64,000 nt of DNA from NCBI RefSeq assembly GCF_016862095.1, contig NZ_BOMH01000018.1:186001-250000 (forward strand). The letters run 5' to 3'. This DNA comes from Actinoplanes cyaneus. Its GTDB lineage: Bacteria; Actinomycetota; Actinomycetes; Mycobacteriales; Micromonosporaceae. Of this stretch, positions 11,786 through 20,503 are shown in pieces. The translations under genes were made by a program, and so were the position numbers. Numbering within the stretch: the first letter of the stretch is position 1; every line of letters starts with the position of its first letter. Under the pieces are notes generated by a model, which saw nothing but the letters and a program-made list of their open reading frames with translations, was not told the DNA's origin and ran no database searches.

Positions 11786-12313
11786 TTACTGGGCGTCGAG
11801 GATGTCGACGACGAAGCGCAGGTCCTGGTCCTTGTAGGCGAGCGCCGCGGGCACGTCCATCTGGATCCGGCTGCCCACGCTCTGCCCGGGAATCCCCTGG
11901 TCCCAGCCGGCGATCAGCTTGCCGGCGCCGATCTGCGAGGTGAACGGCTGCTTCCGGCTCCAGGACGAGTCGATCACGGCGCCGCCCTTGTACGGGATCA
12001 GCTTGTAGTTGAACGTCACGGTCTGTCCGGCCTTGACGACCGGCCCGGTGCCCTTGACCAGGGGGGTGATCACCAGCTCGGTGAGGGGGCCGCCGGTGCC
12101 GGGCTGCACCTCGGGCTCGGTGGTGAGCGGGTCGGCCGAGGTCTGCAGGGGCACGGGGGCTGCGGCGTTCGCCGGGGTCGACTTGTTGTCGTCGCCGTCG
12201 GAGCGAACGACGGCGAACACGACGATCAGCACCACGAAGACGAGCGCGCCGGCCAGCCCACCCAAGATCGCCTGGCTACGGCGCTTACTGGCCGTGGCGG
12301 TCCGGTCACTCAT
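11786..12313 (-). CDS. Membrane-anchored FKBP-type peptidyl-prolyl isomerase
   Basis: 175 aa. A cytoplasmic basic start (SDRTATASKRRS), one membrane helix (AILGGLAGALVFVVLIVVFAV), a disordered linker, and a C-terminal FKBP domain (about residues 80-175). The core is GQTVTFNYKLIPYKGGAVIDSSW followed by IAGWDQGIPGQSVGSRIQMDVP. It should face outside the membrane and assist folding of exported proteins. The usual DFSR-type active-site stretch is represented by IDSSWSR, and the final VFDI-like strand reads FVVDILDA, so it looks functional. The 12314-12531 intergenic DNA separates it from a divergent gene. Confidence 0.88.
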   Translation of the reverse strand: MSDRTATASKRRSQAILGGLAGALVFVVLIVVFAVVRSDGDDNKSTPANAAAPVPLQTSADPLTTEPEVQPGTGGPLTELVITPLVKGTGPVVKAGQTVTFNYKLIPYKGGAVIDSSWSRKQPFTSQIGAGKLIAGWDQGIPGQSVGSRIQMDVPAALAYKDQDLRFVVDILDAQ

Positions 12314-12531
12314 CTACGGGCTCCTCGGTGATAGGCCGGATCGGGAAACTCCGGACACCGTACTCGTAGTCGCCCGGAAAGCCGCGGGGAACTCCGCCGA
12401 ATCGCCGATGGGGGCGATCAGCCGTACGGGCCGTACCCCATCCCGCCCTTCACGCCCTTCACAGAAGATGAGATCGTTTCACCCGCCGCCGTCCGAACGT
12501 TCGGCCGATTCACCGGAGTCTGGGAGAACCG

Positions 12532-13353
12532 TTGCTGCGCCGTCGTCGCATCGAGGTGCCGGATGTGCTGCTCAAGCCGGGCCGGCCCTGGTGGCGCGAA
12601 CATCTCGGCCCGGCCGTCGTGATCCTCGTCGGAGTGCTCGTCGTGGTCCTGGTGGGTGTCGCGGCCCTGGTCAGCCGGTCCAGCGGCCACCCGGACGCCG
12701 CTCCGGTCGTCGGCTCGGTCGCCGACCCGACCGTGGAGCAGGTGCCGATCCCGTTGCCCAGCCCGTCGATCTCGACCAGCCCCGCGCCGATCAACGCGAT
12801 CACCATCGAGCAGGGCAAGGTGCCCGACACGGTCGATCTCAGCGACGAGGGCACGATCGACTGGGTGCACTGGGGCGAGGACGGAACATACTCGCTCGAA
12901 CGTGACGCCAAGGGCGGTTTCGCCATTCTGGAGGGCACGCCGTCCGCGCCCCGGCAGCGGCACACGCTCAGCCCGGAGCGGTTCACCTGGACCGGCGGCA
13001 CCCCGGCGGCCGGCAACGACGGCGCGACCAGCGGCGTGCGCACCTGCGGCGCCGGCAACGGCTTCACCCTCACCGCGCCGGCCACCACGGAACCCCGCAA
13101 ACTGCGTCTCTACCTCGGGATTTCGGGCGGCCAGGGGCTGCTCAAGCTCAAACTCACCACCGGCGAGCTGGTCACCGGCGGGCAGGCCGTGACCGATCGG
13201 CTCACCGGGCCGGACAGCTCGATGACGACAGCGCGGTACTCGATCAGCTACCGAGCGACCCGCCCTGGCAAGATCTCCATCGAGTGGATCACCGAGAAGG
13301 CCACCGGCTCCGGCTGCGGTGGTGTCGCCCTCGAAGCGGCGAGTCTTTCCTAG
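12532..13353 (+). CDS. Membrane-anchored extracytoplasmic beta-sandwich protein
   Basis: 273 aa from a TTG at 12532 with GGGAG six to seven bases upstream. One membrane helix (VVILVGVLVVVLVGVAALV) is followed by a Ser/Pro-rich linker and a ~180-residue extracellular domain with many beta strands. Two cysteines (TCGAGNG and GSGCGG) could form a disulphide. The phrase FTWTGGTPAAGNDGATSGV followed by LRLYLGISGGQGLLKLKL resembles carbohydrate-binding or jelly-roll folds often attached to actinobacterial surface proteins, but I cannot name the family. It ends about 70 bp before the MMPL transporter gene and is probably co-transcribed with it. Confidence 0.7.
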   Translation: MLRRRRIEVPDVLLKPGRPWWREHLGPAVVILVGVLVVVLVGVAALVSRSSGHPDAAPVVGSVADPTVEQVPIPLPSPSISTSPAPINAITIEQGKVPDTVDLSDEGTIDWVHWGEDGTYSLERDAKGGFAILEGTPSAPRQRHTLSPERFTWTGGTPAAGNDGATSGVRTCGAGNGFTLTAPATTEPRKLRLYLGISGGQGLLKLKLTTGELVTGGQAVTDRLTGPDSSMTTARYSISYRATRPGKISIEWITEKATGSGCGGVALEAASLS

Positions 13354-13421
13354 CACTATTCAGGCTTTTCCGTACGGGACCGGTGTGCGTGCCTCGTCAC
13401 CCACCGGGAAAGGGGAACAGG

Positions 13422-16400
13422 GTGTTCGCGGGCTGGGGATCGCGGGTCGCCCGCCTCCGATGGCCGGTGCTGATCGTCACGCTGGTGGCGGTCGTGAGCG
13501 CCGGGGTCTGGGGCATGGGCGTGTTCGGGCAGCTCACCGAGGGTGGATACGCGGATCCCCATAGTGAGTCGGCGCGCGCGGCCGACGTCGTCGCGCAGGC
13601 CACCGGCGGTCAGGGTGGCGACGTGATCGCGATCTACACCCCGTCCGGTGGGGCCAAGATCGACGACGCCGCGCTGACCAAGCGGATCAAGGAGCGCCTC
13701 GCGGCGCTGCCCAAGTCGTCGGTGACGGCGGCCGTCTCGTACTGGGACGCCAGGAACGCGGCGTACGCGGCGAAGGACAGGTCCAGTGCGGTCGCCGTGA
13801 TCACCCTGGCCGGCGACGACGACGCGGACAAGCTCGACGCGTACGGCACTGTCGCGAACCGGTTCGCCGTCGACGGCGCCACCGTGCAGCTCGCCGGCGG
13901 CATCCCGCTCGCGCACACCAGCAACCAGCGCTCCACCGACGACCTCGGATCCGCCGAGCTGATCTCGATGCCGATCGTGCTGATCCTGCTGCTGTTCATC
14001 TTCGGCTCCCTGATCGCCGCGTCGCTGCCGGTGATCGTCGGCGGCTGCGCGGTGCTCGGCTCGCTCGGCGTGCTGAACGCGATCGCTCTCGGACACGACG
14101 TCAACTCGTTCGCGGTGAACGTGGCGAGCCTGCTCGGGCTCGGCATGGCGATCGACTACGGCCTGTTCATGGTCGGGCGCTTCCGCGAGGAACAGGCCGC
14201 CGGGCACGACCCGGCCGAGGCCGTCCGGCGGACCGTGGGCACCGCCGGGCGTACCGTCCTGTTCTCCGCCACGCTGCTGATGACCGCCCTCGCCGGGCTG
14301 CTGCTCTTCCCGCAGGGATTCCTCAAGTCCTTGGCGTACGGCGGTCTGGCCGCGGTCTTCCTCGCGATGCTGCTCTCGCTGACGCTGCTCCCGGCCATCC
14401 TCGCGATCCTCGGGCCGCGCGTCGACCGGCTGCCGGTCCGGCTCCCCGGCCGCGGCAAGGGCGAGGGCGGCACCGGCTGGCGGCGGCTCGCCGGGTTCGT
14501 CCTGCGCCGCCCGGTGGTCGTGGCGATCCCGATCCTGATCGGGCTGATCGTGCTCGCGCTGCCGATCCGCGACGTCCGGTTCGGCGAGAACGACGAGCGG
14601 GTGCTGCCCGCCGGTGACCCGTCCCGCGTCGCGGTGGAGACCCTCAAGGCGTCGTACCCGCAGTTCAGCGGCGACGGCGTGCAGGTCGTGGTGCAGGGAC
14701 CGCCGGCCGCCTCCTCGAAGTTCGCCGCGTCCTCGAAGTTCGCCGCCGAGCTTGCCAAGATCCCCGGGGTGGTCTCGGTCGACCCGGCCGGCGCCGGCAA
14801 GGACGTGCTGATCTACAACGCCGCCCTGTCCAGCACCGACTCGTTCAGCACGTCGGCCCGCCAGGTCGTCGACGCCATCCGGGCACTGCCCGCCCCGGTC
14901 GGCACGCAGGTCCTGGTCGGCGGTGTCACGGCCCGCAACGTCGACAGCCTGGACGCCATCAGCGACCAACTCCCGCTCATGATCGGACTGCTCGCCGGGG
15001 CGACGCTGCTGCTGATGTTCCTCGCCTTCGGCTCGATCCTGCTGCCGATCAAGGCGGTGGTGATGAGCGGGCTCAGCCTCAGCGCCACGTTCGGCGTGCT
15101 CGTCTGGCTGTTCCAGCAGGGCCACGGCTCGGGATTGCTGAACGTCACCCCGGCGCCGCTGGAAGCCGGGATCGTGGTCCTCATGGCAGCGGTCGTCTTC
15201 GGTCTCTCCACCGACTACGAGGTGTTCCTGCTCTCCCGGATGGTCGAGGCCCGCAGCAAGGGCGCCTCGACCGCCGAGGCGGTCACCATCGGGCTCACCC
15301 GCACCGGCCGGGTGATCAGCGCCGCCGCGGTGCTGCTCATCGTGGTGACCGGCGCGTTCGCGCTCTCCACGATCACGACCATGCGGTTCGTCGGCGTCGG
15401 CATGATCGTCGCGCTGGTCCTGGACGCGACGGTCGTGCGGATGCTGCTGGTCCCGGCCGTGCTCGCCCTGCTCGGGGACGCCGCCTGGTGGGCGCCGGGG
15501 CCACTGCGGCGACTCCAGGAACGGGCCGGGCTCGCCGAACACGCCGGCGAGCAGGAGGAGCCGGCGACAGAAGTTCTCCCGTACGACGGGATCGCCGCTC
15601 ACCTGGCGGAACGGTCGGCGGCGGAGCAATCGACGGCGGAACGGTCCGCGGCGGAACGGTCGCTCGCGGGGGCCGACGCGGCCACGGTCGTGTTGCCGGT
15701 GATCGAGGCCGCCACGCCGGTGCCGCAGGAGAGCTCGGCCACGACGGTGCCGCCGGTGGCCGGGACTGCCACGTCGGTGCCGCTCGAGGCCGACGAGGAG
15801 TCGCTGGTCACCGCGCCGGACGAGACGTCCATCATCGTCTGGGACCCGGATGGTGATGCCGAGCCTTCCACGACCGGAACCGACGAGGGTGCCGGTGCCG
15901 ACGAGTCCCCGAACGACAAGTCAGCGGCTGGCGACGAGGGGATCGTTTCCGGTCACGGCGCGTCCTCTGCCGGCGAACAGACCCAGATCCTTCCGGTCAT
16001 CTCCGCCTCGACCGCCGCACTGGACTCGACCACCGCACCCGACTCCGCCGGCCAGCCGGACCCGCGCGATCAGCCGGACTCGGACGGCCAGCCGGACTCG
16101 GACGATCATGCCGAGGCCGCCGAGGAGTCGACCACGGCCGACCGCCCGGTACCCGTCGAGGCCGATGAGTCCGGCAGTCCCGCAGCCGACGACATCGACG
16201 ATCCCGCGGCGGACAACGCCGACGACACCGACGTTCCGGCGGCGGACAACGCCGACGATCCCGTGGTGGACGACACCGACGGCGAGGGAAGGGCCGCGGC
16301 GGGCGAGACTGACAGGTCCGGGCCTGACGAGCCCGGTGACGAGCGCCACGCGCCGGAAGAGATCGATGCGGTTCCTTCCCCGGGCGCCGCCGGGGTGAAG

Positions 16401-17861
16401 GACACCTTCAACCCCTGGGCCAAGGCGGCGGTCAGCGACACGGCGTCCTCGGACCTGGCCGGCAGCGGGGCTTACGACGTCACCCAGGTGATGCCGATCT
16501 ACCAGGCCGCTCGCAGGTTCACCGGCATCGACACGACGGCTCCCGCCGCCACCTCCGAACCCGCTGCCGGGGAGAAGATCGAGCCCGAGAAGTCCGGCGA
16601 AGAGACATCCCAGGTCGACCGGGCCCCCGAGTCCACACCTGAGGTCGAGCCGGAAACGGCTTCCGAGCCCACACCCGAACGCGAGCCGGAACCGGAATCG
16701 ACGCCTGAGCCGGATCCGGAGGCGAAGTCCGAACCGGAGCCGGAACTTGAGACGGAATCAGCACCGGAGCCGGAACTGGAACGGAAGGCGGAGGCGGAAG
16801 CCGCACCGGAGGCCGAGGTTGAGGCGGAGGGCGACGGCGAGGCGGGGACACCGGACGGGATGGCTCAGGCTGCCCCGATCAGTGCGATCCCGGCTGAGGT
16901 CGCGGATGCCTTCACCTGGATGTCGGATCCCAGGATCGCCGGGATCGTCGGTGGTGGGGACGACGCCGGGCAGACCGCGGATCCTGACTTCACCTGGCTT
17001 GCCGCCACCGCCGCGCTGCCGACCGTCTCGGCCGGCTCTGACACCGCTGCCACGCCCGAGCCAGAACCGGCGGCTCCGGCCGAGACCGCCCCGGCCGCCC
17101 CGGCCGCCCCGGAAACGGACAAGCCAGCCGGCCCGGTAGCAGACAAGCCGGCTGACCCGGTAGCAGAAAAGCCAGTCGACCTGGGAGCAGACAAGCCGGC
17201 CGACCTGGAAGCGGACAGGCCCGCCGTTCGTCGTCCGCAGACGCTGGATGACTGGTTGGGTGGTCGGGTTACCGGTTCGGGCAGGCCGGCGCACGCGGCG
17301 GAGGTGACCCCGGCGGAAAAGGACGCGGGGAAGGTCGAGGCGGCAGAGGTGACGCCGGTGAGTGCGGTTCCGGCCCGGCGGCCGCAGACGCTCGACGAAT
17401 GGCTGCACGGCAACCCCGCTCAGCCTCGCCCGAAGAGCCTCGACGACTGGCTGGCCGCTGACGACCGCCCGGTCAGTTCGGCCGGTCCGCGTCCGCAGAG
17501 CCTCGGGGATCTGCCCGGCCGCAACGATCGGAAGGTCGGCTCGGCCCGGTCACCGTTCCCCGGCCCCAGCGCCGTGACCGGTGAGAACCGCCCGCAGAGC
17601 CTCGGCGACCTGCCGACCGGTGGCAAACCTCCGGCGGCCGAGCGGCGACCGGCGACACTCGCCGACCACTCCCCCGGCACGAACCGGACCCGCCGAGCCA
17701 ACAGCGGCCCGGCCCACCACGACCGCCCCGAGAACGCCGCCCGGCCGGCCGGCGGGGACCGGCCCGTCAGCGGACAGCCGGCGACCGGCGGGGACCGGCC
17801 GGCGAACGGCGGCCCGGGCGGGGCTGATGGTGAGAGCGACCCGGACCCGACCGCCACCTGA
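13422..17861 (+). CDS. MMPL/RND-family exporter with a very long disordered tail
   Basis: 1479 aa. The GTG at 13422 is preceded by AAAGGGGAACAG and opens the typical MMPL first helix. Residues 1-690 form the transporter: two RND halves, each with one helix, an external loop and five or six helices. MmpL hallmarks include LLGLGMAIDYGLFMVGRFRE and GLSTDYEVFLLSRMVE, whose aspartates sit in the proton relay. Family substrates are lipids or hydrophobic compounds. Residues ~700-1479 form an acidic, Pro/Ala/Glu-rich tail with PEPEPE runs, four T-x-V/I-L/M-P motifs and six RPQ-T/S-L-x-D-W/L motifs. MMPL proteins are usually 700-1000 aa, so the tail is exceptional. It contains no hydrophobic segment and should be cytoplasmic. 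Confidence 0.88.
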   Translation: MFAGWGSRVARLRWPVLIVTLVAVVSAGVWGMGVFGQLTEGGYADPHSESARAADVVAQATGGQGGDVIAIYTPSGGAKIDDAALTKRIKERLAALPKSSVTAAVSYWDARNAAYAAKDRSSAVAVITLAGDDDADKLDAYGTVANRFAVDGATVQLAGGIPLAHTSNQRSTDDLGSAELISMPIVLILLLFIFGSLIAASLPVIVGGCAVLGSLGVLNAIALGHDVNSFAVNVASLLGLGMAIDYGLFMVGRFREEQAAGHDPAEAVRRTVGTAGRTVLFSATLLMTALAGLLLFPQGFLKSLAYGGLAAVFLAMLLSLTLLPAILAILGPRVDRLPVRLPGRGKGEGGTGWRRLAGFVLRRPVVVAIPILIGLIVLALPIRDVRFGENDERVLPAGDPSRVAVETLKASYPQFSGDGVQVVVQGPPAASSKFAASSKFAAELAKIPGVVSVDPAGAGKDVLIYNAALSSTDSFSTSARQVVDAIRALPAPVGTQVLVGGVTARNVDSLDAISDQLPLMIGLLAGATLLLMFLAFGSILLPIKAVVMSGLSLSATFGVLVWLFQQGHGSGLLNVTPAPLEAGIVVLMAAVVFGLSTDYEVFLLSRMVEARSKGASTAEAVTIGLTRTGRVISAAAVLLIVVTGAFALSTITTMRFVGVGMIVALVLDATVVRMLLVPAVLALLGDAAWWAPGPLRRLQERAGLAEHAGEQEEPATEVLPYDGIAAHLAERSAAEQSTAERSAAERSLAGADAATVVLPVIEAATPVPQESSATTVPPVAGTATSVPLEADEESLVTAPDETSIIVWDPDGDAEPSTTGTDEGAGADESPNDKSAAGDEGIVSGHGASSAGEQTQILPVISASTAALDSTTAPDSAGQPDPRDQPDSDGQPDSDDHAEAAEESTTADRPVPVEADESGSPAADDIDDPAADNADDTDVPAADNADDPVVDDTDGEGRAAAGETDRSGPDEPGDERHAPEEIDAVPSPGAAGVKDTFNPWAKAAVSDTASSDLAGSGAYDVTQVMPIYQAARRFTGIDTTAPAATSEPAAGEKIEPEKSGEETSQVDRAPESTPEVEPETASEPTPEREPEPESTPEPDPEAKSEPEPELETESAPEPELERKAEAEAAPEAEVEAEGDGEAGTPDGMAQAAPISAIPAEVADAFTWMSDPRIAGIVGGGDDAGQTADPDFTWLAATAALPTVSAGSDTAATPEPEPAAPAETAPAAPAAPETDKPAGPVADKPADPVAEKPVDLGADKPADLEADRPAVRRPQTLDDWLGGRVTGSGRPAHAAEVTPAEKDAGKVEAAEVTPVSAVPARRPQTLDEWLHGNPAQPRPKSLDDWLAADDRPVSSAGPRPQSLGDLPGRNDRKVGSARSPFPGPSAVTGENRPQSLGDLPTGGKPPAAERRPATLADHSPGTNRTRRANSGPAHHDRPENAARPAGGDRPVSGQPATGGDRPANGGPGGADGESDPDPTAT

Positions 17862-19780: not shown

Positions 19781-20503
19781 TCAGGGCCGGGGCCAAGTGG
19801 CCGGGTGCTGACCATCCCGCGGCGGACGCCCACCGTCCCGGTCACCGTCCCGATCGCCCGTCGGCGGCCGGTCCCGGTCACCGTCGCGGTCACCCGTCGG
19901 CCGGTCCCGGTCCCGGTCACCATCGCGGTCACCCGTCGGCCGATCGCGGTTCCGGTCACCGTCGCGGTCACCCATCGGGCGGTCCCGGTCCCGGTCACCC
20001 GTCGGGCGGTCCCGGTCCCGGTCGCCCATGGGGCGGTCACGGTCGTCGTCGCGGTCACCGCGCGGGCCGTCGAACGGCGGCCGGCCGTGCGGCCCGGACG
20101 GCGGCCGGCCGTGGCCACCGCGGACGTGGAAGGGCTGGCCCACGAAGTCCGGCCGGTACGGCCAGCCGCCCGGCCACGATCCACGCCAGTCGTCCCAGCC
20201 CCAGTCGTTGTCGTCGACGACGAGCTGGAACACCCAGCCGCGCCAGCCGTAGCGGATCGGATCGCAGTCGAAGTCGTACCAGGCGCGGAACCGCTTGCCC
20301 GTGTATCCGGCCCGCTCGCACGACCATTCGGTGCGGTAGTAACCGACCACGTGCTCGCCGAAGGCCGACACCCGGCCGGCCGTGCTGCCACCGGTGGACG
20401 ACTGGCCTGCGGACGGGGCAGCCTGCACCGGACCCATCCCGATCATCGCGCCGGCGGCGATGCTCATGCCGGTGAGTGCGAGGAAACGCTGTGCCTTGTT
20501 CAT
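19781..20503 (-). CDS. Secreted protein with Asp/Arg-rich repeat tail
   Basis: 240 aa. The signal peptide (about residues 1-28) ends near GPVQAA. Residues ~45-105 form a small domain with two cysteines (EWSCERAGYTG and YDFDCDPI) and many Trp/Tyr residues. The C-terminal ~100 residues are a tandem repeat of RDRDRPTGD-type units (GDRDGDRDRDRPTGDRDGD and variants), strictly alternating acid and base, so disordered but near neutral. The DNA shows the same repetition as ~18- to 30-bp GGTCACCGTCGCGGT-like units. The function is unknown; similar cysteine-containing N-domains occur in actinobacterial secreted proteins. Repeat number probably varies between strains. Confidence 0.75.
   Translation of the reverse strand: MNKAQRFLALTGMSIAAGAMIGMGPVQAAPSAGQSSTGGSTAGRVSAFGEHVVGYYRTEWSCERAGYTGKRFRAWYDFDCDPIRYGWRGWVFQLVVDDNDWGWDDWRGSWPGGWPYRPDFVGQPFHVRGGHGRPPSGPHGRPPFDGPRGDRDDDRDRPMGDRDRDRPTGDRDRDRPMGDRDGDRNRDRPTGDRDGDRDRDRPTGDRDGDRDRPPTGDRDGDRDGGRPPRDGQHPATWPRP

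What the first reader, a model, noticed from the sequence alone, without database searches (positions are those of the whole stretch)
15487..17861. MMPL exporter with a 780-residue disordered tail carrying two repeated short motifs
Family proteins end near residue 700-1000. This one continues with an acidic Pro/Ala/Glu tail. Four copies of a T-x-V/I-L/M-P element occur (TEVLPY, TVVLPV, TQILPV, TQVMPI, around 15566, 15685, 15982 and 16483) and six copies of RPQ-T/S-L-x-D/E-W/L-L at 17233-17670. Repeated short motifs in a disordered tail usually recruit partners, for example scaffolding or cell-wall machinery. The DDWL copies (1-3) grade into GDLP copies (4-5), suggesting expansion and drift.
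Basis: partly seen in the sequence, partly recalled or inferred. Interest (0 to 1): 0.65.

Follow-up and report, generated by a model that had tools for sequence, protein, structure and literature searches.

The report
Lipid exporter with motif-studded floppy tail
An Actinoplanes relative of the mycobacterial lipid exporter MmpL3 carries a very long floppy tail, probably inside the cell, studded with repeated short docking-like motifs that evolution has kept while much of the rest of the tail changed freely, so the tail may hold the exporter at its work site.

Summary
The protein is an MMPL exporter (likely start GTG 13422) with a 790-residue tail carrying both motif sets; no shuffle of the tail reaches either count (0 of 20,000). 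The core is the Actinoplanes counterpart of mycobacterial MmpL3. Disordered cytoplasmic tails are known on MmpL3, where they give polar localisation and are phosphorylated, so this is an extreme variant of a known feature.

New here: (1) The RP repeat is R-P-x-[T/S/D]-L-x-[D/E]-(W, L or H/Q), 147 copies in 34 rows. Its fourth position, counted free, is T/S/D/N in 146 of 149: a helix N-cap box, and AlphaFold starts short helices there. Arrays lie in one clade, the W form in one sub-clade; classes co-exist rather than grade. (2) The T element is better written T-x-[V/I]-[L/I/M/F]: Thr is 5-fold over expectation there, Ser is not, and acidic residues precede it, as for kinase sites read by FHA domains. 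The Pro is optional. (3) Other islands are conserved, such as DAFTWMSDPRIAGIV.

Likely role: a two-code docking tail that places the exporter at growth sites. The partner, the phosphorylation and the substrate are inferred or unknown.

The parts
12532..13353 (+). Conserved upstream gene: one TM helix plus beta-sandwich ectodomain (CBM-like, weak); ends 68 bp before the exporter start
   Evidence: AF2 pLDDT 58; Foldseek top hit a CBM, E 2e-4. A terminator-like site lies at its end, 13323-13342, so co-transcription is not shown
13422..15488 (+). MMPL transporter core, MmpL3 branch; D-Y pairs in both halves (IDYGLF, TDYEVF)
   Evidence: Pfam MMPL 1.9e-75; PDB MmpL3 512 bits against MmpL5 94; tree; translation
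15489..15566 (+). Juxtamembrane WAPGPLRRLQERAGLAEHAGEQEEPA, resembling WAPxWMKRIQxRIGLGE of mycobacterial MmpL3
15567..15584 (+). T element 1, TEVLPY; TE[VI]L.Y at the same place in near relatives and T[EQ]V[LI].Y in four H-clade rows, not found by that pattern in nine W-clade rows
   Evidence: (identity 0.65)
15684..15701 (+). T element 2, TVVLPV
   Evidence: 0.60
15804..15839 (+). Conserved island LVTAPDETSIIV(WDPD); holds T-S-I-I, a T element of the wider form
15981..15998 (+). T element 3, TQILPV (poorly conserved in the alignment)
   Evidence: 0.13
16482..16499 (+). T element 4, TQVMPI, within LAGSGAYDVTQVMPIYQAARRFT
   Evidence: 0.50
16869..16967 (+). Conserved island AAPISAIPAEVADAFTWMSDPRIAGIVGGGDDA; two helices modelled at low confidence
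16986..17021 (+). Conserved island DFTWLAATAALP, with TAALP at 17007
17232..17264 (+). RP motif copy 1, W class, RPQTLDDWLGG; helix modelled at LDDWL (pLDDT about 50)
17379..17411 (+). RP motif copy 2, W class, RPQTLDEWLHG; first half of a doublet with 16-residue spacing
   Evidence: (0.81)
17427..17459 (+). RP motif copy 3, W class, RPKSLDDWLAA; second half of the doublet
   Evidence: (0.50)
17490..17522 (+). RP motif copy 4, L class, RPQSLGDLPGR
   Evidence: (0.57)
17589..17621 (+). RP motif copy 5, L class, RPQSLGDLPTG (less conserved)
   Evidence: (0.20)
17646..17678 (+). RP motif copy 6, H/Q class, RPATLADHSPG: the class found in both array-bearing clades
   Evidence: (0.94)

Best explanation
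The gene is the Actinoplanes counterpart of MmpL3, an RND-type lipid exporter (substrate unknown). Its tail is cytoplasmic, disordered and long, and carries two docking codes. Code 1, R-P-x-[T/S/D]-L-x-[D/E]-[W/L/H/Q], is a ready helix start: T/S/D caps the first turn and D/E three residues later closes the capping box; each copy would dock as a short helix, showing L and W/L/H, into a folded partner, and several copies on a leash give avidity. Code 2, T-x-[V/I]-[L/I/M/F] behind acidic residues, is Thr-specific, and would be phosphorylated by PknA/PknB-type kinases and read by an FHA protein. By analogy with MmpL3, whose cytoplasmic tail is dispensable for export but needed for polar and septal placement, the tail would hold the exporter at growth or septation sites. 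Shown: tail, motifs, conservation, capping-box and Thr statistics, clade pattern, MmpL3 kinship. Inferred: cytoplasmic side, docking, phosphorylation, localisation. Unknown: partners, substrate.
For: MmpL3 kinship: (10-row clade with MmpL3, 100/99). Motif residues conserved over the rest. dN/dS 0.16-0.34 in islands against 0.40-0.61 in linker, with synonymous sites well diverged (islands were chosen by conservation, so partly circular). RP motif 3 or more times in 24 of 34 rows; fourth position free T/S/D/N in 146 of 149, seventh free D/E in 145 of 153, background 27% and 17%. AF2 helices begin right after the cap in copies 1-3, and the copy 2-3 doublet is the best-scored stretch (pLDDT 74-78). 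RP motif absent outside this gene in 356,546 six-frame residues of this genome. Arrays in one clade (100/98), W form in one (100/100). T element: Thr 79 against 15.3 expected before x-[VI][LIMF], Ser 9 against 16.9; acidic residues before it 1.67 against 1.11 per six (p 4e-9). FHA domains in this genome: 5 matches. MmpL3 cut at residue 744: viable, polar placement lost (PMC6656915, passages).
Against: No partner found and none could be tested. The AF2 tail model is poor (pLDDT 50, pTM 0.17, 3 sequences). Ten of 34 rows have one RP copy (4) or none (6), so the exporter works without the array in some species. Copies T3 and R5 are poorly conserved. With Pro required, the T element shows no acid excess (p 0.17-0.30), and Ala before x-[VI][LIMF] also has more acid upstream (p 0.002), from the H clade. 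The two M. smegmatis phosphosites that I could map are not the Thr of such an element. The p-values treat related sequences as independent. The localisation role is borrowed from mycobacteria, whose tails lack the RP array.
Confidence: 0.5

Rival explanations
1. Phospho-throttle: kinases phosphorylate the T elements and this slows transport directly, as reported for MmpL3, with no FHA docking or placement role; the RP array does something else.
For: PknB overexpression raised MmpL3 phosphorylation in its tail and gave a lipid profile of lost transport (PMC10171966, passages). PknA sites favour acid upstream and Leu/Val at +3 (PMC7164672, passages). Thr-specific, acid-led T-x-[VI]-[LIMF]. Mycobacterium tails: acid before T-x-[VIA]-[LIMF] 1.49 against 0.79, p 1e-8, and 53 T-x-[VIAT]-[ILMF]-P in 27 tails against 1.6 expected.
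Against: M. smegmatis T920 and T984 are not such Thr; T920 is three residues before T923-RAMP (counted by eye). PknA logo also has Pro at +2 and basic at +4, which the window copies lack. Phosphorylation of MmpL3 rose on double PknA/PknB depletion. No T-x-[VIA]-[LIMF]-P in the FHA/kinase-cluster ORFs kept by my filter (indirect).
Confidence: 0.2
2. Intramolecular or oligomer role: RP copies bind the exporter's own cytoplasmic face or a neighbouring protomer.
For: Truncating the MmpL3 tail weakens MmpL3-MmpL3 interaction (PMC6656915, passages). The RP motif was found in this gene only (the two DNA patterns are strict and found only 1 of the 6 window copies).
Against: Orthologues without the motif keep the same core; not tested by a complex model.
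Confidence: 0.13
3. Plain spacer or crowding brush: the acidic tail matters by bulk and charge only; the repeats are by-products of repeat expansion.
For: In-genus tail length varies from 119 to 1434 residues; low complexity; A. palleronii contigs end in it.
Against: Motif conservation, capping-box positions, class-specific consensus, Thr-over-Ser bias. Codons differ among the six copies, so they are not recent duplications.
Confidence: 0.1
4. Artefact: frameshift, fused or non-coding tail.
For: Lower third-position GC in parts of the tail (0.73-0.80).
Against: Open in orthologues of very different length, including single-contig genomes G010, G016 and G023; amino acids conserved with divergent synonymous sites.
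Confidence: 0.02

Closest known systems
MmpL3 (trehalose monomycolate exporter of mycobacteria), with its cytoplasmic C-terminal domain
   Same: Best-scoring solved structure for the core (512 bits) and same clade; D-Y pairs in both halves; like juxtamembrane piece; low-complexity Pro-rich tail, predicted disordered in MmpL3 (PMC10171966, passages); acid-led T-x-[VIA]-[LIMF] elements
   Different: NCBIfam MmpL3 score 658 against a cut-off of 1400; Actinoplanes makes no mycolates (recalled); array-clade tails 528-1434 residues against about 210-290 in nearly all complete Mycobacterium tails seen; RP array absent from those tails
REIESWLG element of Mycobacterium MmpL3 tails (noticed here)
   Same: Hydrophobic-[D/E]-x-W-hydrophobic core, as in TLDEWLHG; in 22 of 27 Mycobacterium tails and 9 of 19 tails of other genera of that family
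   Different: Single copy, no RP, no T/S/D cap; absent from the 8 H-clade tails and L065 (0 of 9) and from five tails of other genera of the window's family, of which only L184 is long, so common descent is not shown
MmpL11/MmpL13 (other cluster II MmpL proteins)
   Same: MMPL fold; cluster II shares a cytosolic C-terminal domain (PMC10171966, passages)
   Different: In the 28-row tree the split, MmpL13-like gene pairs with paralogue G000 C51, and the MmpL11-like gene lies outside (both labels are mine, from gene splitting and nearness to mmpL3)

Membership tests
MmpL3 equivalog (NF052608) | Score over the curated cut-off of 1400 bits | tested here: not met
   658 bits
MmpL3 equivalog (NF052608) | Groups with MmpL3 rather than with other MMPL | tested here: met
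   10-row clade with MmpL3, 100/99, in a 28-row tree
MmpL3 equivalog (NF052608) | Asp-Tyr proton-relay pairs in both halves | tested here: met
   IDYGLF and TDYEVF in the translation; place in TM4/TM10 not modelled
MmpL3 equivalog (NF052608) | Exports trehalose monomycolate | not testable with these tools
   No mycolates expected in Actinoplanes (recalled)
MMPL / RND superfamily (PF03176) | Two MMPL stretches over the gathering score | tested here: met
   254 bits, cut-off 20.5, 2 stretches
Cluster II MmpL with cytosolic C-terminal domain | Long C-terminal extension after the last TM helix | tested here: met
   790 residues; side of the membrane inferred from MmpL3
[quoted passage not shown]
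   -
PknA-type phosphosite | Leu/Val-type hydrophobic residue at +3 from Thr | tested here: met
   L or M at +3 in all 4 window copies
   p 0.30, 0.26 and 0.17
PknA-type phosphosite | Acidic residues enriched upstream, T-x-[VI]-[LIMF] with Pro optional, and Thr over Ser | tested here: met
   1.67 against 1.11, p 4e-9; Thr 5.2-fold, Ser 0.5-fold; form chosen after seeing the sites
Helix N-cap box motif | S/T/D/N at N-cap, D/E three residues later, then helix | tested here: met
   146 of 149 and 145 of 153; AF2 helices in copies 1-3 (low-confidence model)

The most novel reading that the evidence does not exclude
The hydrophobic-[D/E]-x-W-L element of mycobacterial MmpL3 tails (REIESWLGEL) and the W-class repeats of Actinoplanes (RPQTLDEWLHG) are one docking code for the same partner, kept as one copy in mycolate producers and multiplied into arrays in Actinoplanes. 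If so, a single unknown adaptor places MmpL3-type exporters at growth sites across the order, and the Actinoplanes array would be the bait with which to find it.
Probability: 0.13. Interest if true: 0.75.

Novelty: new variant of a known kind. Interest (0 to 1): 0.53.

Why it matters
The MmpL3 tail is needed for polar placement in mycobacteria, but the text that I read says CrgA does not bind through it and leaves the recruiter open (PMC6656915, passages). A relative in which a tail element is repeated up to 11 times with a clear consensus gives a ready bait for pull-down, and the Thr-specific acid-led element gives testable phosphosites. It also shows that an MmpL3-type exporter and its tail are under selection in bacteria not known (recalled) to make mycolic acids.

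Tried and rejected
Kinase-site reading: at first down-weighted because acid upstream of T-x-x-hydrophobic-Pro was not raised. I therefore moved it into the best explanation; no other odds were changed for that reason than those of this reading and its rivals. Same RP motif elsewhere: DNA patterns in 5 genomes hit only this gene (strict, 1 of 6 window copies found), the tail search gave weak hits only, and those loci hold no copy. Tail stretch 15480-16600 against the PDB: nothing at E 10 (the RP part was not searched apart). Descent of the W motif from MmpL3: not accepted. 'DDWL drifts to GDLP': rejected. Neighbour gene by structure: weak model (pLDDT 58), listed hits at most 0.31 TM of the query, a mix of CBMs, MAM domains and toxin binding components. 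Promoter scan: 0 sites; terminator-like sites 5 against 1.6 expected, one pair at the end of the upstream gene. Literature: no paper on an Actinoplanes MMPL tail in the listings. Prisic 2010 is recalled and seen only as a reference; PMC2867705 and PMC7397745 are not held.

Rows dropped: G001 (core broken over contigs) and G014/A. palleronii (contig ends in the tail) were left out of motif counts; L042, L043 and L044 appear to be the same records as L182, L064 and L060 (equal contig lengths) and were counted once. L045 (frame begins within the core; N-run in the tail) was counted for motifs but left out of the tree. The 'same genus' rows follow the tool's kinship; two seem to carry other names (Pseudosporangium, Mangrovihabitans). 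The first tree lacked 10 labelled rows that my script failed to extract; one search used a partly different set of 28 rows. In one search, 7 of 24 loci gave no tail by my regex, 5 of 36 gave none, and 4 more (L110, L111 and the short L114 of another genus, the N-filled L134) were left out of the 27 Mycobacterium tails. 'Mycobacterium' is inferred from MmpL3 scores over the cut-off.


Full report
Observation. The frame 13284-17861 encodes an MMPL exporter (Pfam PF03176, E 1.9e-75). The better start is GTG 13422, behind a purine-rich GGGAAAGGGG stretch and 68 bp after the preceding gene, giving 1479 residues. The tail runs from residue 690 (15489) to 1479. Of the six RP copies four read RPQ, and the last lacks the W/L-L ending. 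R-P-x-[TSDN]-L-x-[DE] occurs six times in 356,546 six-frame residues of this genome that I held (the window and 21 other loci, among them the weak hits); all six are in this tail. Strict DNA patterns for two forms, run on five whole genomes, hit only this gene, but they are insensitive: of the six window copies they found one.

Where it sits. The window lies in a 10.36 Mb genome. Its named relatives are mostly Actinoplanes (A. liguriensis 93% in the best segment, A. siamensis, A. palleronii, A. regularis), so I take the genus to be Actinoplanes. It encodes one TM helix and a beta-sandwich ectodomain; the model is weak (pLDDT 58) and the PDB hits are a mix of carbohydrate-binding modules, MAM domains and toxin binding components at low TM-score. 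It may be a partner on the outer face; this rests on gene order only, and a terminator-like site lies at its end.

Which exporter. The core's best solved relatives are MmpL3 chains (512 bits; MmpL5 94 bits). The NCBIfam MmpL3 model scores 658 bits, under its cut-off of 1400, so it is not MmpL3 by that standard. In a 28-row tree the window group and the MmpL3 clade fall together (10 rows, 100/99), while the split, MmpL13-like gene pairs with another paralogue of this genome and the MmpL11-like gene lies outside (these two labels are mine). I call it the Actinoplanes counterpart of MmpL3. Actinoplanes is not known to make mycolic acids (recalled), so the substrate is open.

The tail in relatives. 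Eleven near rows (608 to 1434 residues) were aligned. Most of the tail is poorly alignable, but islands stand out: the juxtamembrane WAPGPLRRLQERAGLAEHAG, TEVLPYDGIAAHL, LAGADAATVVLPV, LVTAPDETSIIV, AAPISAIPAEVADAFTWMSDPRIAGIVGG, DFTWLAATAALP and the RP copies. Motif residues have mean identity 0.56 against 0.25 for the rest, and none of 764 circular shifts does as well. Copy by copy it is uneven: T3 0.13 and R5 0.20, R2 0.81 and R6 0.94. Against five orthologues, islands have dN/dS 0.16-0.34, near the core's 0.16-0.31, and the linker 0.40-0.61; synonymous sites are well diverged. Islands were picked by conservation, so this is partly circular; it mainly shows that the protein, not the DNA, is conserved.

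The RP motif. Over 34 rows (the window and 33 orthologues that the tools place in its genus, or that are named Actinoplanes) I count 147 copies. Classes: W (RPQTLDEWLsG, 42), L (RPQTLGDLP, 40), H/Q (RPATLADHL, 51), others 14. Twenty-four rows have three or more copies, four have one, six have none. With the fourth position left free it is T 91, S 34, D 20, N 1, others 3 (149); the seventh left free is D or E in 145 of 153. Tail background for T+S+D+N is 27%, for D+E 17%. S/T/D/N followed three residues later by D/E is the helix N-cap box (recalled). AlphaFold, given three sequences, leaves most of the last 333 residues without structure (mean pLDDT 50, pTM 0.17) but starts helices at L129, L178 and L194, directly after the T/T/S of copies 1, 2 and 3, and gives its best scores (74-78) to residues 171-200, the copy 2-3 doublet; copy 1 scores only about 50. 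The doublet keeps a 16-residue spacing in 7 of 16 W-clade rows, near relatives of the window (in two of them the second copy has V or M for W); successive spacings elsewhere run from 11 to 536. L-class copies have Pro after the L in 24 of 40, and those of the window were not modelled as helices of 4 or more residues. The model cannot prove a bound helix.

The T element. Among residues placed two before a [VI][LIMF] pair, Thr is found 79 times against 15.3 expected from composition, Ser 9 against 16.9; the bias holds in the W clade (57 against 11.9), the H clade (15 against 3.2) and the rest (7 against 0.6). Acidic residues in the six places before such Thr number 1.67 against 1.11 for other Thr (p 4e-9), but with Pro required there is no excess (p 0.17-0.30). 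As a control, Ala in that place also has more acid upstream (p 0.002); this comes from the H clade, not the W clade, and Ala itself is not enriched there overall (0.79-fold). The form without Pro was chosen after seeing sites, and rows are related, so the p-values are too sharp. In 27 Mycobacterium tails acid before T-x-[VIA]-[LIMF] is 1.49 against 0.79. PknA sites favour acid upstream and Leu/Val at +3, also Pro at +2 and basic residues at +4 (PMC7164672, passages), and FHA domains bind phospho-Thr (PMC11898655, passages); Thr over Ser fits an FHA-read site. Against it: the two M. smegmatis phosphosites that I mapped by eye on the full-length PDB sequence, T920 and T984, are not such Thr, T920 lying three residues before T923-RAMP, and no Pro-form element was found in the FHA/kinase-cluster ORFs of this genome kept by my filter. 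The genome has 5 FHA matches over the cut-off.

History. In a tree of 33 in-genus cores and four outgroups, the 15 W-class rows form one clade (100/100), the 8 H-class rows another (100/99), and the two together one clade (100/98); the 10 rows with one copy or none branch outside. So arrays arose once, or were lost outside; the W form is confined to one branch. Single copies in some outer rows (RPESLSDLGP, RPRDLGDL) fit growth from one copy. Codons differ between the six window copies. The T element, present in the outer rows too, looks older than the RP array.

Comparison with MmpL3 tails. In 27 Mycobacterium MmpL3 tails (from the loci) T-x-[VIAT]-[ILMF]-P occurs 53 times against 1.6 in shuffles, and a hydrophobic-[DE]-x-W-hydrophobic element, mostly REIESWLG[ED]L, in 22. 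In 19 tails of other genera of that family the W element is in 9 and the T element in 5. In Actinoplanes the W element is in all 16 W-clade tails and in 0 of 9 others (8 H-clade rows and L065), and none of five tails from other genera of the window's family has it, of which only L184 is long. The likeness is real as a pattern, but descent is not shown; convergence or chance choice of a W context are open.

Known function of such tails. In M. smegmatis rescued with an M. tuberculosis MmpL3 cut at residue 744, cells live but the protein's polar and septal placement is reduced and its self-interaction weakens; CrgA binding does not need the tail (PMC6656915, passages). The MmpL3 tail is predicted disordered and is phosphorylated by PknA/PknB, linked to lower activity, though phosphorylation rose when both kinases were depleted (PMC10171966, passages). 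MmpL3 is in the FhaA interactome, direct or indirect (PMC11898655, passages).

Mechanism. Best supported: a multivalent docking tail with two codes. Shown here: a long coding tail, a repeated element with capping-box statistics, a Thr-specific acid-led element, conservation over linker, a clade-limited array. Inferred: cytoplasmic side (from MmpL3), docking as a short helix, phosphorylation and FHA reading, localisation at growth sites. A direct phospho-throttle on transport, an intramolecular role and a plain brush are the rivals.

Verdict. Four searches of the paper library (listings) showed nothing on Actinoplanes MMPL tails.

Noticed in passing
window 12532-13353 (+): Conserved gene directly upstream of the exporter in all in-genus loci that hold that side (29 loci, 26 genomes): TM-anchored beta-sandwich with DWVHWG and two Cys invariant in six aligned rows; possible outer-face partner.
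   Followed up: partly
Mycobacterium-type loci L106-L141, MmpL3 tails: A conserved REIESWLG[ED]L element and 1-4 T[TR]A[IM]P-like repeats in most MmpL3 tails seen; I saw no mention of either in the passages that I read.
   Followed up: partly
window 16869-17021: AAPISAIPAEVADAFTWMSDPRIAGIVGG...DFTWL is a strongly conserved tail island; D-x-F-x-W is in all 16 W-clade tails. Not an RP element; role unknown.
   Followed up: partly
L040 / L046 (A. palleronii contigs NZ_BOMS01000105 and 104) and L045: Draft assemblies break or hold N-runs inside this tail, so tail lengths in draft genomes may be wrong or split over two gene records.
   Followed up: no
window 19781-20503 (-): Small exported-looking protein ending in GDRDGDRDRDRPTGDRD-type repeats, variable among relatives.
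   Followed up: no
L147 (G000:C56), minus-strand ORF at 11870-13600: An ORF in the kinase/FHA cluster of this genome, probably one of the cell-shape genes there (guess from position), ends in ...GAMTEVIKP, which is a T-x-V-I element like those in the exporter tail.
   Followed up: no
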